Below the pieces are notes generated by a model. It saw nothing but the letters and a program-made list of their open reading frames with translations, was not told where the DNA came from and searched no databases. A DNA stretch of 64,000 bases from Aromatoleum toluclasticum ATCC 700605 (GTDB lineage: Bacteria; Pseudomonadota; Gammaproteobacteria; Burkholderiales; Rhodocyclaceae), in NCBI RefSeq assembly GCF_000378245.1, contig NZ_KB899494.1:62001-126000 (forward strand). The letters are read 5' to 3'. Of the stretch, positions 30,171 through 39,291 are shown piece after piece (within the stretch, counting starts at the first letter, position 1; every line of letters begins with the position of its first letter). The position numbers and the translations under genes are program-made.

Positions 30171-30219
30171 CCGGGGTGCGTCATGCGCTATCCCTCCCGT
30201 TTCGAGTCATCGTTGTCGG
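30171..30219 (+). repeat. Left direct repeat: degenerate copy of the mnmG 5' end
   Basis: These 49 bases align to 39242-39291 with two substitutions and one missing base (47 of 50 identical). It includes ten bases before the mnmG ATG and about the first twelve codons. The missing T at 30206 breaks the reading frame, so it is not a functional start of mnmG. The minus-strand TorD gene uses the reverse of this sequence for its last nine codons and stop. Confidence 0.85.
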
Positions 30220-30868
30220 CCTCGGCCAGGAAGGCCTTCGCAAGCGCCGCGAGCGACCGGTAGAGCCGTGCATCCGGGTGTGCCGAGACGCGGTCGAGAA
30301 AGCGCGGAGCCCATCGGCCGAGATGGCGCCCCAGAAACTCGCGCTGGTAGCGCGCGGCGTCGCGCGCGCAGGCGGCTTCGCCCGTCTCCAGCGCGAACGC
30401 CTGCTCGCGCGCCAGATGGCCGAGGAACTCCAGCTCGATGCTGAAATGGTCGGGTTCCATCCGCAGCGCATCGGCGAGGCGGAAGCCGGTCCGTTCGTAG
30501 AAGTCGCGCACGTCCGCCGTCTCGGGCCCGCGCAGGATGCCCGAGCCGCCCGCGAGCTGCACGGACTCATGCGGCGAGACGAGCACACCGGGCAGCAGGA
30601 AGAGGCGGGCGAACTCGACCGCCACCTCATCGGCGAGATCCTTCTCGTCGAACCCGCCGAAAAGGGCTTCCTGCGTCAGCCCGATGTCGGCGAGGGCGTC
30701 GGCGAGCGCCCCGGTACGCAGCGCGGACAGCGCGGCGGCGTCGGGCGCGTGGCGGAAGAGGCCCGACAGGAGGTCGAAGATCGCCGCGCGGGCGCGGATC
30801 GCCTGCATGGCGTCCGCGTCCTCGCTGACCGCCTCGGACCGCAGGGTGTCACGGTCGGTCGCGCTCAT
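30188..30868 (-). CDS. TorD family chaperone for the NrfD-type molybdoenzyme
   Basis: A 226-residue helical chaperone of the TorD family. The core motif is VAVEFARLFLLPGVLVSPHESV, with the second helix MEPDHFSIELEFLGHL. It shares an ATGA overlap with the catalytic-subunit gene, so this is its client. The last nine residues (DNDDSKREG) and the stop codon are encoded by the antisense strand of the mnmG-like repeat. The original C-terminus was therefore probably replaced when the module joined this site. The tail lies outside the conserved fold, so function is likely kept. Confidence 0.87.
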   Translation of the reverse strand: MSATDRDTLRSEAVSEDADAMQAIRARAAIFDLLSGLFRHAPDAAALSALRTGALADALADIGLTQEALFGGFDEKDLADEVAVEFARLFLLPGVLVSPHESVQLAGGSGILRGPETADVRDFYERTGFRLADALRMEPDHFSIELEFLGHLAREQAFALETGEAACARDAARYQREFLGRHLGRWAPRFLDRVSAHPDARLYRSLAALAKAFLAEADNDDSKREG

Positions 30869-33390
30869 GCCTTGACAACCTTGACGACGGTGTCCATCCA
30901 GCGCTGCTCGCCGTTGATCGGATCGGGCGAGTTCGGAATGATCCAGTTCGGATGCACGCCGTGGTCCCCCTTCCACCAGATGCGCTCGAGATCGGCGTCA
31001 TTGTCGGTCGCGGTGGGCCCCCGCTTGCCGGAGGCGTAGCGCCCGTATTCCCAGTGGCCGCAGTGGTGGGAGATCGCGATCACGCCCACATTCACGGCCG
31101 GCGTGACCTTCGCCTCGGTGACGATCTCGCCGACGACCGAGCTGACCTTGATCCGGTCACCGTCCCGGATCTCGCGCCGGGCGGCGTCGGCCGGGTTTAT
31201 CCAGGCCGGATTTTTGTGATAGAGCTCGGTGAGGTACTTGCAGTTGGGCGAACGCGAGTGGATCTGGGTCGCGACCTTGAAGGTCGTCAGCACCAGCTCG
31301 TCCGGCGTCATGCGCTCGTGCTCCGGCACCGCCATCCAGGTCGGCATCGGCGCGAAGCCCTTCTCCGCCAGGATCGCGGAATGGACCTCGAACAGCCCCG
31401 ACTTGTTGACCTTGTCGGGCGGGAAGCCCCTGACGACCCGCTCACCGATGCGCTGGCCGACGTAGGCCTTGTAGGCGCCCTTGACGTGGGCATACCCCGT
31501 CTTGAGGGCCTCTGCGCGGCTATCGACGTGCGCCTTCTGCCAGTCCCAGTACACACCGGTCGCTTCATCGAAGACCACCGAGTCCTTCTGGTAGTCCTCG
31601 GCTTTGATCTCGCGCCGATAGCTGAAATACACAGGGCTTGCCTTCGGGTCGTGGTACACGCCGTTCTGCTTCATGTACTCGAAGCCCCCTACGGCCGCAA
31701 CGGCGGGCGTCATTTCGCAGGACAGGCGGACGAACTCTTCCTTGGACGCGTAGCCGAGCGGCGTGCCGAGGCGCTCGGCCAGTTCGCACACGACGTCGCC
31801 GAAGTCGCGTGTCTCGCCCATCGGCTTCACCGCCGGCTGGCGGATGTAGAACTCGGGGATCTGCACCGGCGAGACCATGTCTTCCCAGTCCCAGCGCTCG
31901 ACATAGGTCGGCTCCGGCAGGATCAGGTCGGCGAGGGCGGCCGATTCGTCGTAGAAGGGATTGATATTGACGTGGAAGGGGATCAGCGTCTCGTCCTTCA
32001 GGATGTCGATGTTCTCCTGCACGTTGCCGTTGGCATAGGCCGGGGTGTACTTGTAGCAGATGTAGATTTCCGGCCGTCCGGCGCTGCCGTCCTTGATCAT
32101 CTTCAGGACTTGATGGCTCATGTGGTGCGTCGGCAGGGCCGCCGCCCCTTTCGGGCCATCGGCGATCGCGAGCTTGCGTGCCTTCGGCAAATTCTCCGGC
32201 CCCTTCGGGAACTGCCACTTCGGTTCGATCGCCTTGCAGCGTCCGCCGGGGTTGTCGATGTTGCCGGTGATCGCCGCCAGCGTCTGGATTGCGCGCTCGG
32301 TCTCGTTGCCGTTGTAGTGCGCGATCGCGCCGCGGTAGCTGATCACGCAGGCCGGATGCGCCGTCGCGAACTCGCGCGCGAGGCGGCGAATCGTCTGCGC
32401 CGGCACGCCCGAGAGCTTCTCGGCCCATTCGGGCGAGTACGGTTCGAAGTGCGCCTTGAGCGCCGCGACCTTCTCGTCGAGGCTCGCTTCGCGCTTGTCG
32501 GTGACCTTGCAGTATTCGAGGAAGGCTTCGCCGTCACCCTTGTGGAGGTCTTCGCCCATCACGACGTGGCACATCGCGAGCACGACCGCCAGATCGGTGC
32601 CCGGCTTGATCGGCACCCATTCGGAGGATTTCGCGGCGGTGTTCGAGAGGCGTACGTCGAAGGTCACTAGCCGCACGTTGCGCTCCGCGATCGCGCGGAT
32701 CAGGCGATGCGAGGTCGGGACGTGGTTGGTGCCCGCTTCGAAGACGTTCGAACCGAAATTCAGCACGAAGCGCGTATTGTCGAAATCCCAGCTGTCATAG
32801 TGTGCACCCCAGGTGAGCTCCTGCGCGGTCCACTTGCCGCCCTCGCAGATCGACGTGTGGTCACCGATGGTGCCGGTGCCGACTACCGCGAGAAAAGTGT
32901 TCACCATCTTGCTGGTGGACGACTTCATGCGCCCGTACTGGAACATCACCTTTTCCGGTTCGCCCTTGTCCATCAGGGCCTTGATCCGCCCGGCCAGCTC
33001 GCCGAGGGCCTCGTCCCAGGAAATCTGCTTCCACTTCCCTTCGCCGCGCTTGCCGACCCGCTTGAGCGGATACAGGATGCGGTCCGGGTCGTTCGGCTGG
33101 TTGACGCCGCCCTGGCCCTTGGCGCACATCACACCTTCCGAGCGGATCGACTTCAGCTGGCCTTCGATCTTGACCACCCGGCCGTCCTCGACGTAGGTGA
33201 CGTTCGGGCAGCGCGTCACGCATTGGTAGCACGCGCTCGGCACTGCCTTGCGTTCGCGGCCGGTCTTGCGGGAGAAGTCCTGGTTGCCCCACACCAGCGT
33301 GTCGCCGGCCTTGCCCAGCGTCGGCGCGCCGGCGAGACCGGCCGCGGCCGAGGCGACACCCAGTTTCAGGAAATGACGACGATCGAACAT
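30865..33390 (-). CDS. Tat-exported molybdopterin oxidoreductase, Psr/Phs/Ttr/Arr-like catalytic subunit
   Basis: An 841-residue DMSO-reductase-family enzyme. The twin-arginine signal is FDRRHFLKLG (Arg4-Arg5). The 4Fe-4S site is Cys54, Cys57, Cys61 and Cys89, spaced x2, x3, x27. The metal ligand is probably Cys182 in HTSICEGGKW. The C-terminal dinucleotide-binding domain includes the ISHHCGHWEYGRYASG stretch. Together with NrfD and FeS partners this is the polysulfide, thiosulfate, tetrathionate or arsenate reductase type of complex. Length and the x27 spacing resemble arsenate reductase ArrA, but I do not see its known active-site motif (YGRM stands near the expected place), so no substrate is assigned. 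Selenium, sulfur or arsenic oxyanions are candidates. The start has a GGAG site. Confidence 0.88.
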   Translation of the reverse strand: MFDRRHFLKLGVASAAAGLAGAPTLGKAGDTLVWGNQDFSRKTGRERKAVPSACYQCVTRCPNVTYVEDGRVVKIEGQLKSIRSEGVMCAKGQGGVNQPNDPDRILYPLKRVGKRGEGKWKQISWDEALGELAGRIKALMDKGEPEKVMFQYGRMKSSTSKMVNTFLAVVGTGTIGDHTSICEGGKWTAQELTWGAHYDSWDFDNTRFVLNFGSNVFEAGTNHVPTSHRLIRAIAERNVRLVTFDVRLSNTAAKSSEWVPIKPGTDLAVVLAMCHVVMGEDLHKGDGEAFLEYCKVTDKREASLDEKVAALKAHFEPYSPEWAEKLSGVPAQTIRRLAREFATAHPACVISYRGAIAHYNGNETERAIQTLAAITGNIDNPGGRCKAIEPKWQFPKGPENLPKARKLAIADGPKGAAALPTHHMSHQVLKMIKDGSAGRPEIYICYKYTPAYANGNVQENIDILKDETLIPFHVNINPFYDESAALADLILPEPTYVERWDWEDMVSPVQIPEFYIRQPAVKPMGETRDFGDVVCELAERLGTPLGYASKEEFVRLSCEMTPAVAAVGGFEYMKQNGVYHDPKASPVYFSYRREIKAEDYQKDSVVFDEATGVYWDWQKAHVDSRAEALKTGYAHVKGAYKAYVGQRIGERVVRGFPPDKVNKSGLFEVHSAILAEKGFAPMPTWMAVPEHERMTPDELVLTTFKVATQIHSRSPNCKYLTELYHKNPAWINPADAARREIRDGDRIKVSSVVGEIVTEAKVTPAVNVGVIAISHHCGHWEYGRYASGKRGPTATDNDADLERIWWKGDHGVHPNWIIPNSPDPINGEQRWMDTVVKVVKA

Positions 33391-33402
33391 GGCTTGACTC
33401 CT

Positions 33403-39089: not shown

Positions 39090-39168
39090 TCCCTTCGTCC
39101 GGGCCTCTCGGGCGCGCCGCGCGGGCGACGCGTTCGTGCAAGTCACTGTTTGTTATCCGCTTTTCTGT

Positions 39169-39188
39169 GGAACACCAGTGCGGAACAC
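39169..39188 (+). repeat. Tandem heptamer GGAACAC upstream of mnmG
   Basis: GGAACAC occurs at 39169-39175 and again at 39182-39188, 13 bases apart, a little over one helical turn. It lies in the 164-base gap before mnmG. It could be an operator, but no regulator is implicated and it may be chance. Confidence 0.3.
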
Positions 39189-39241
39189 TAGGCTTTCGCA
39201 CTGCAACAGCGTAACATCTCCCGTCTTTCGCTTCATCCGCG

Positions 39242-39291
39242 CCGGGGTGCGCCATGCTCTATCCCTCCCGTTTCGATGTCATCGTTGTCGG
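39242..39291 (+). repeat. Right direct repeat: intact mnmG 5' end
   Basis: These 50 bases contain the ten bases before the mnmG ATG and the start of its coding region ([13 protein letters not shown]). They match 30171-30219 in the same orientation at 47 of 50 positions. The upstream sequences of the two copies differ, so the shared segment begins sharply at CCGGGGTGCG. Downstream similarity fades after about sixty bases. Confidence 0.85.

What the first reader, a model, noticed from the sequence alone, without database searches (positions are those of the whole stretch)
30171..39291. A 9-kb respiratory module bracketed by direct repeats of the mnmG start
The sequence at 30171-30219 repeats 39242-39291 at 47 of 50 positions in the same orientation, and the right copy is the true mnmG start. 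Between the copies lie only the molybdoenzyme operon and its sensor operon. The flanking sequence differs immediately upstream of each copy. This is the footprint of insertion at the mnmG 5' end that restored a full mnmG, or of exchange with a relative's mnmG region. An insertion hotspot at the start of mnmG is not something I know to be described.
Basis: partly seen in the sequence, partly recalled or inferred. Interest (0 to 1): 0.9.

Follow-up and report, generated by a model that had tools for sequence, protein, structure and literature searches.

The report
Imported respiratory genes beside mnmG
A block of seven foreign respiratory genes was inserted just upstream of the housekeeping gene mnmG, in a chromosome spot whose contents differ between related species, and one edge carries a broken copy of the start of mnmG as a scar.

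Summary
Between the copies lies a seven-gene molybdoenzyme module (four structural, three sensor genes). Comparison supports insertion. Of 17 genomes of the genus only this one has the module (others have at most 50%-identical relatives elsewhere) and a second mnmG start. Others carry different cargo there: nine arrangements in the 11 genomes that share the upstream flank. The closest homologue found is in Sedimenticola (molybdoenzyme 80% identical, same seven genes).

The hotspot is not the mnmG start. The variable interval ends about 115 bp upstream of it, before a conserved leader. The mnmG-start scar occurs in 1 of 52 loci, lacks that leader, and supplies the last ten codons of the TorD-type gene on the opposite strand; it is a junction by-product whose exact origin is undecided. 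The interval is among the most variable nearby (1st of 85 intervals with four genomes, 4th of 195 with three). Variable spots without integrases are described, so this is a new member of a known kind.

The parts
29948..30112 (+). Internally deleted remnant of gene X (537 codons in G167, permuted papain-like amidase PF05708): first ~34 codons joined to the last ~20
30171..30219 (+). Left copy of the mnmG start (scar); without the mnmG leader
30188..30868 (-). TorD-type chaperone (PF02613); last 10 codons and stop lie in the left mnmG copy
30865..33390 (-). Molybdopterin oxidoreductase catalytic subunit, 841 aa
33403..34356 (-). NrfD-type membrane subunit
34359..35210 (-). 4Fe-4S subunit
35378..36283 (+). 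PhnD-like periplasmic binding protein (PF12974)
36280..37752 (+). Histidine kinase (HAMP, HisKA, HATPase)
37749..39089 (+). Sigma-54-type response regulator
39136..39253 (+). mnmG leader, aligns with relatives from about -115
39242..39291 (+). Right copy of the repeat, the true mnmG start
39254..41185 (+). mnmG

Best explanation
The 9-kb stretch is a horizontally acquired molybdoenzyme respiratory module. It entered, in this lineage only, a cargo-variable chromosomal interval between an amino-acid-type ABC transporter/yjdM block and the mnmG-rsmG-parAB operon. The seven genes fill it and none is an integrase or transposase. Inferred mechanism: foreign DNA was captured by host recombination plus an end-joining step. 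The left join was made between the 3' end of the incoming TorD-type gene, which lost its native tail, and a short copied piece of the first ~46 bp of mnmG, most simply a patch copied from the nearby gene during the joining. mnmG itself stayed intact on the right with its own leader. The left copy is an inert scar, except that its opposite strand now encodes the last 10 residues and the stop of TorD. Shown: absence from the 16 other genus genomes, foreign origin, variable cargo, TorD tail in the mnmG copy, no leader on the left. Inferred: the enzymology, the single patch event and the order of steps. I hold lineage-specific insertion itself at about 0.9; the confidence below is for the whole statement, patch included.
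For: Empty or otherwise filled site in relatives: glutaredoxin gene next to a single mnmG in G044, gene X between them in G167, other cargo elsewhere. Second mnmG start in 1 of 17 genus genomes (two further weak hits in G322 and one in G167 are short, 28-56 bp, 77-93%, E>1e-4) and in 1 of 52 upstream regions. Molybdoenzyme: 1 of 399 order genomes at E<=1e-230; Sedimenticola 80% with the same gene arrangement. TorD tail: of 68 homologues with a visible stop, 56 have more than 10 residues beyond the point aligned with residue 216, median 15, Sedimenticola 19. Leader motifs absent at 29601-30220. The interval has the largest length range of 85.
Against: No intermediate and no donor with the true module was found, so the joining step is unseen. 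The left copy differs at 3 of 50 columns, and one of its changes (CGC as second codon) also stands in the mnmG of another family member, G057 (L043), so a foreign mnmG source is not excluded. Leaving out this genome the interval is 2nd of 85, and with three genomes 4th of 195. Twelve of the 68 TorD homologues have 10 or fewer residues beyond that point, minimum 2, so a short native tail is possible.
Confidence: 0.5

Rival explanations
1. One-sided homologous exchange: a relative or a circular intermediate carried the module upstream of an mnmG start. Recombination in mnmG on the right and an illegitimate join at mnmG codon ~15 on the left left the recipient's own mnmG start at the left. The ~115-bp leader there was deleted later.
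For: Gives the arrangement mnmG-start / module / leader / mnmG directly. A CCCG[C/T]C match between the X tail and the leader could have served the deletion. Exchange at flanking core genes is an established route (PMC5635113, passages).
Against: Needs an extra deletion. No genome with the module beside mnmG was found. Trees of mnmG against its neighbours give no supported conflict for this genome, though support at its branch is low throughout mnmG.
Confidence: 0.27
2. Tandem duplication and deletion: the module with a full TorD entered first; a local duplication ending in mnmG codon ~15 and a deletion of most of the left unit left the mnmG fragment.
For: Explains the missing leader and the truncated TorD without a donor carrying mnmG; gene X next door shows that deletions happened here.
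Against: Two unseen steps; no remnant of a second module copy was reported by the repeat search of 25-45 kb, which shows only the 20 largest of at least 60 families.
Confidence: 0.13
3. Site-specific insertion at the mnmG start by an unrecognised mobile element, the repeat being its target duplication.
For: Direct repeat at both ends; cargo differs between species.
Against: Left copy is not accompanied by the leader; copies begin at unequal surroundings; no recombinase among the seven genes; 51 other loci lack such a repeat.
Confidence: 0.04
4. Assembly artefact: the module was joined to the wrong place.
For: Draft assembly of 46 contigs, contamination estimate 2.25%; no read coverage available.
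Against: The two copies differ, so a k-mer join is unlikely; the TorD frame runs through the junction to a stop; both junctions lie inside a 404-kb contig; module G+C 67.0% against 67.7% for the window.
Confidence: 0.04

Closest known systems
Integrase-less horizontal-transfer hotspots (Oliveira et al. 2017, PMC5635113; passages read)
   Same: Variable cargo between two core genes, no recombinase seen in the module, several arrangements among relatives
   Different: Defined there within species with whole-genome statistics; here compared between species in one 400-kb segment, and flank recombination was not tested
arx arsenite-oxidase island of Azoarcus sp. CIB (PMC6683785; passages read)
   Same: Divergent operons, binding protein plus two-component regulators beside a molybdoenzyme operon with TorD-like chaperone, acquired horizontally
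   Different: arxB2ABCD has another gene order and a second FeS gene; that island has integrase and transposase genes; ArxA identity was not tested here
Polysulfide/thiosulfate reductase (PsrABC/PhsABC) type complexes
   Same: Catalytic, FeS and NrfD-type subunits; best NCBIfam model PhsA, best PDB chain 2vpw
   Different: 343 bits against a PhsA cut-off of 694; substrate unknown

Membership tests
Integrase-less cargo hotspot | Interval between conserved neighbours holds unusually varied cargo | tested here: met
   Largest length range of 85 intervals; 2nd of 85 without this genome and 4th of 195 with three genomes; 9 arrangements in 11 genomes
Integrase-less cargo hotspot | No recombinase in the cargo | tested here: met
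   For the module only: the seven genes fill the interval. Cargo of other genomes was not searched for recombinases family by family
Integrase-less cargo hotspot | Raised homologous recombination in flanking core genes | tested here: inconclusive
   Four-block trees poorly resolved for this genome; no within-species set
Site-specific island at a gene end | Integrase gene and matching attachment repeats | tested here: not met
   No integrase among the seven genes; unequal flanks of the two copies
PhsA thiosulfate reductase | Score above the NCBIfam equivalog cut-off | tested here: not met
   343 vs 694 bits
DsrO (by FeS subunit) | Score above the NCBIfam equivalog cut-off, with a DsrP partner | tested here: inconclusive
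   FeS subunit 219 vs cut-off 200 for DsrO, but it scores higher for TtrB (237, cut-off 416), and the membrane subunit gets 27 vs 350 for DsrP
ArrA / Arx-type arsenic enzymes | Score above the ArrA cut-off; arsenic activity | tested here: not met
   ArrA 205 vs 1600 bits; no ArxA model appeared among the 25 families shown; activity not testable

The most novel reading that the evidence does not exclude
The leader and 5' end of mnmG, at the head of the mnmG-rsmG-parAB operon, is a preferred entry point for foreign gene blocks in this genus. Capture proceeds without a recombinase and can leave a copied fragment of mnmG that is then used, on the opposite strand, as the new C-terminus of an incoming gene.
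Probability: 0.1. Interest if true: 0.5.

Novelty: new member of a known kind. Interest (0 to 1): 0.33.

Why it matters
It gives a before/after record (empty, alternative cargo, loaded) of the acquisition of a complete respiratory module without a recombinase of its own, with a readable junction scar. It also shows how an incoming gene can take a new C-terminus from the opposite strand of host DNA. The locus is a convenient place to look for species-specific traits in this genus. It does not establish a new integration system.

Tried and rejected
Second mnmG starts as a general mark of the site: 1 of 52 loci. The next best match (L191, 34 bp, E=7e-6, minus strand, about 12 kb upstream) and the weaker rest I take, untested, for dinucleotide-binding motifs of other flavoproteins. 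A donor with the module beside mnmG: no MnmG hit in 80 loci. Closer homologues: none in 399 order genomes at E<=1e-230, nine besides this one in 369 class genomes, best 70%. Plasmid carriage: one 39.9% relative, Azoarcus sp. KH32C plasmid, at E<=1e-100. A foreign mnmG: not resolved by trees or by an identity scan in which the nearest genome changes from 500-bp block to block on both sides. A parS site in the mnmG leader: with up to 2 mismatches of the recalled consensus only two places, both on contig C26. Consensus promoters and terminators at the two junctions: none found. mnmG or gidA as an insertion site in print: searches (open-access library only) listed 5, 0, 4 and 2 papers, none with such a title; I did not open them. 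Searches were looked at as listings only.

Full report
Observation. The repeat is as described: 47 of 50 columns, two substitutions and one gap, same orientation. Extended, it covers mnmG -12 to +46 at 89.8%. Genome-wide the left place matches only itself and the mnmG start. In 200 doublet shuffles of 19 kb the best local score was 35, against 86.

What lies between. On the minus strand: a TorD-type chaperone (30188-30868), a molybdopterin oxidoreductase (30865-33390), an NrfD-type membrane subunit (33403-34356) and a 4Fe-4S subunit (34359-35210). On the plus strand: a PhnD-like binding protein, a histidine kinase and a sigma-54 response regulator (35378-39089). The catalytic subunit is below the cut-off of each of the 25 NCBIfam families shown of 26 matched (best PhsA, 343 vs 694 bits). 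The FeS subunit does pass one cut-off, DsrO (219 vs 200), but scores higher for TtrB without reaching that cut-off, and the membrane subunit is far below DsrP. The best PDB chain for the catalytic subunit is 2vpw, thiosulfate reductase. The substrate is unknown.

Foreign origin. In 395 family genomes, 30, this one included, have a relative at E<=1e-150. Apart from this module the best is 50% identical (G100), and the genome itself has a second, 42% relative on contig C7. At E<=1e-230, 1 of 399 order genomes (this one) and 10 of 369 class genomes (this one included) match; the best of the nine others is 70% identical. Of 129 confirmed public loci the best 80 were kept. The closest is Sedimenticola hydrogenitrophicus, with all seven genes in the same divergent arrangement (molybdoenzyme 80%, FeS 78%, NrfD 79%, TorD 53%, PhnD 60%, kinase 56%, regulator 69%). 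None of the 80 shows an MnmG hit, but many of these contigs are short. Module G+C is 67.0%, like the window (67.7%) and unlike the Sedimenticola module (60.7%), so either the direct donor was another organism or the composition has adapted.

Empty and alternative sites. mnmG was located in 17 of 17 genus genomes, and its upstream region was fetched for the 16 relatives. G167 has gene X (permuted papain-like amidase, PF05708) in the gap; the window has an internally deleted remnant of X (29948-30112), so X was there before. Eleven of the 17 genomes share the ABC-transporter/yjdM left flank. For this genome and for G213 that rests partly on the identity scan, since not all flank genes were called. 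Contents before mnmG: no gene called (G299); KTSC+EthD (G233, G249); X (G262, G322); KTSC+EthD plus two genes (G192); TPR-rhomboid-glutaredoxin+X (G167); TPR-rhomboid-glutaredoxin (G044); TPR-rhomboid-glutaredoxin+KTSC+EthD (G333); EthD plus about 10 kb of other genes (G213); TPR-rhomboid-glutaredoxin+X remnant+module (this genome). That makes nine arrangements (domain names from one member each). The other six genomes (G344, G137, G100, G288, G311, G276) have different flanks. The ORF caller was a heuristic and missed genes that tblastn found (glutaredoxin in G044).

Is it a hotspot? Core-gene intervals were compared over a 400-kb segment. With four genomes there were 86 core genes and 85 intervals, in effect about 25-149 kb of the contig, because G299 shares only 94 collinear genes. 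The interval ending at mnmG has the largest length range (14205, 4970, 1436, 913 bp) and is the only one whose four lengths all differ by more than 400 bp. Without this genome it is 2nd of 85. With three genomes (195 intervals, 337 kb) it is 4th by range and one of four with three distinct lengths. So it is strongly variable but not unique, and the test counts length, not gene content. Its mnmG-side limit is about 115 bp before the start codon, where a leader begins that aligns in the relatives; it is not the mnmG start.

The scar. The left copy lacks the leader motifs, which are absent at 29601-30220. It follows the tail of X; a CCCG[CT]CTTTC match there may be chance, microhomology or a degraded extension. 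On its other side it meets TorD at about residue 216. Of 68 homologues with a visible stop, 56 have more than 10 further residues, median 15, range 2-45; Sedimenticola has 19. So the incoming gene most likely lost its own tail and now ends in codons read from the opposite strand of mnmG. At the 27-bp start pattern 9 of the 16 relatives carry the letters of the right copy exactly, G333 has 1 mismatch, five have 2-3, and G344 has no match within 3. The changes are therefore most simply placed in the left copy. One of them (CGC as second codon) also occurs in the mnmG of a more distant relative, G057 (L043). No other of the 52 upstream regions has such a scar.

Mechanism. Capture without a recombinase, with an end-joining step at the left, is the best reading. 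A patch copied from mnmG needs one event; one-sided exchange with later loss of the left leader, or duplication and deletion, need two. They are not separated by the data. Trees of four blocks give no supported sign that mnmG is foreign: its branch has 28-54% support in the mnmG tree, while downstream blocks place this genome beside G262, G333, G044 and G167. Hotspots without integrases, with recombination at flanking core genes, are established (PMC5635113, passages). The arx island of Azoarcus sp. CIB has a similar two-operon layout but carries integrase and transposase genes (PMC6683785, passages).

Verdict. A hotspot at the mnmG start is not supported; the variable place is the interval upstream of the mnmG leader.

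Noticed in passing
window 30188-30220: The last 10 codons and stop of the TorD-type gene are read from the opposite strand of the copied mnmG start.
   Followed up: yes
window 29948-30112: Remnant of a C92-type permuted amidase gene with an internal deletion of about 1.4 kb relative to G167.
   Followed up: partly
window 39136-39253 and 51 related loci: A GTG[A/G]AACA motif stands in the 140 bp before mnmG in 43 of 52 loci; meaning unknown.
   Followed up: partly
G000:C26:9657-9672 and 10469-10484: Two near-consensus parS-like palindromes (1 mismatch) 0.8 kb apart, on another contig than mnmG.
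   Followed up: no
G000:C7:265975-268422: A second, 42% identical relative of the molybdoenzyme in the same genome.
   Followed up: no
G213, 2-11 kb upstream of mnmG (L189): Different cargo, which by recalled motifs looks like a glutamate dehydrogenase and a metal-transporting P-type ATPase.
   Followed up: no
L103-L182: The molybdoenzyme family is scattered over marine and sulfur-associated Proteobacteria, Nitrospinota and others, often with the same PhnD-like/kinase/sigma-54 regulator trio, and has no matching NCBIfam equivalog.
   Followed up: partly
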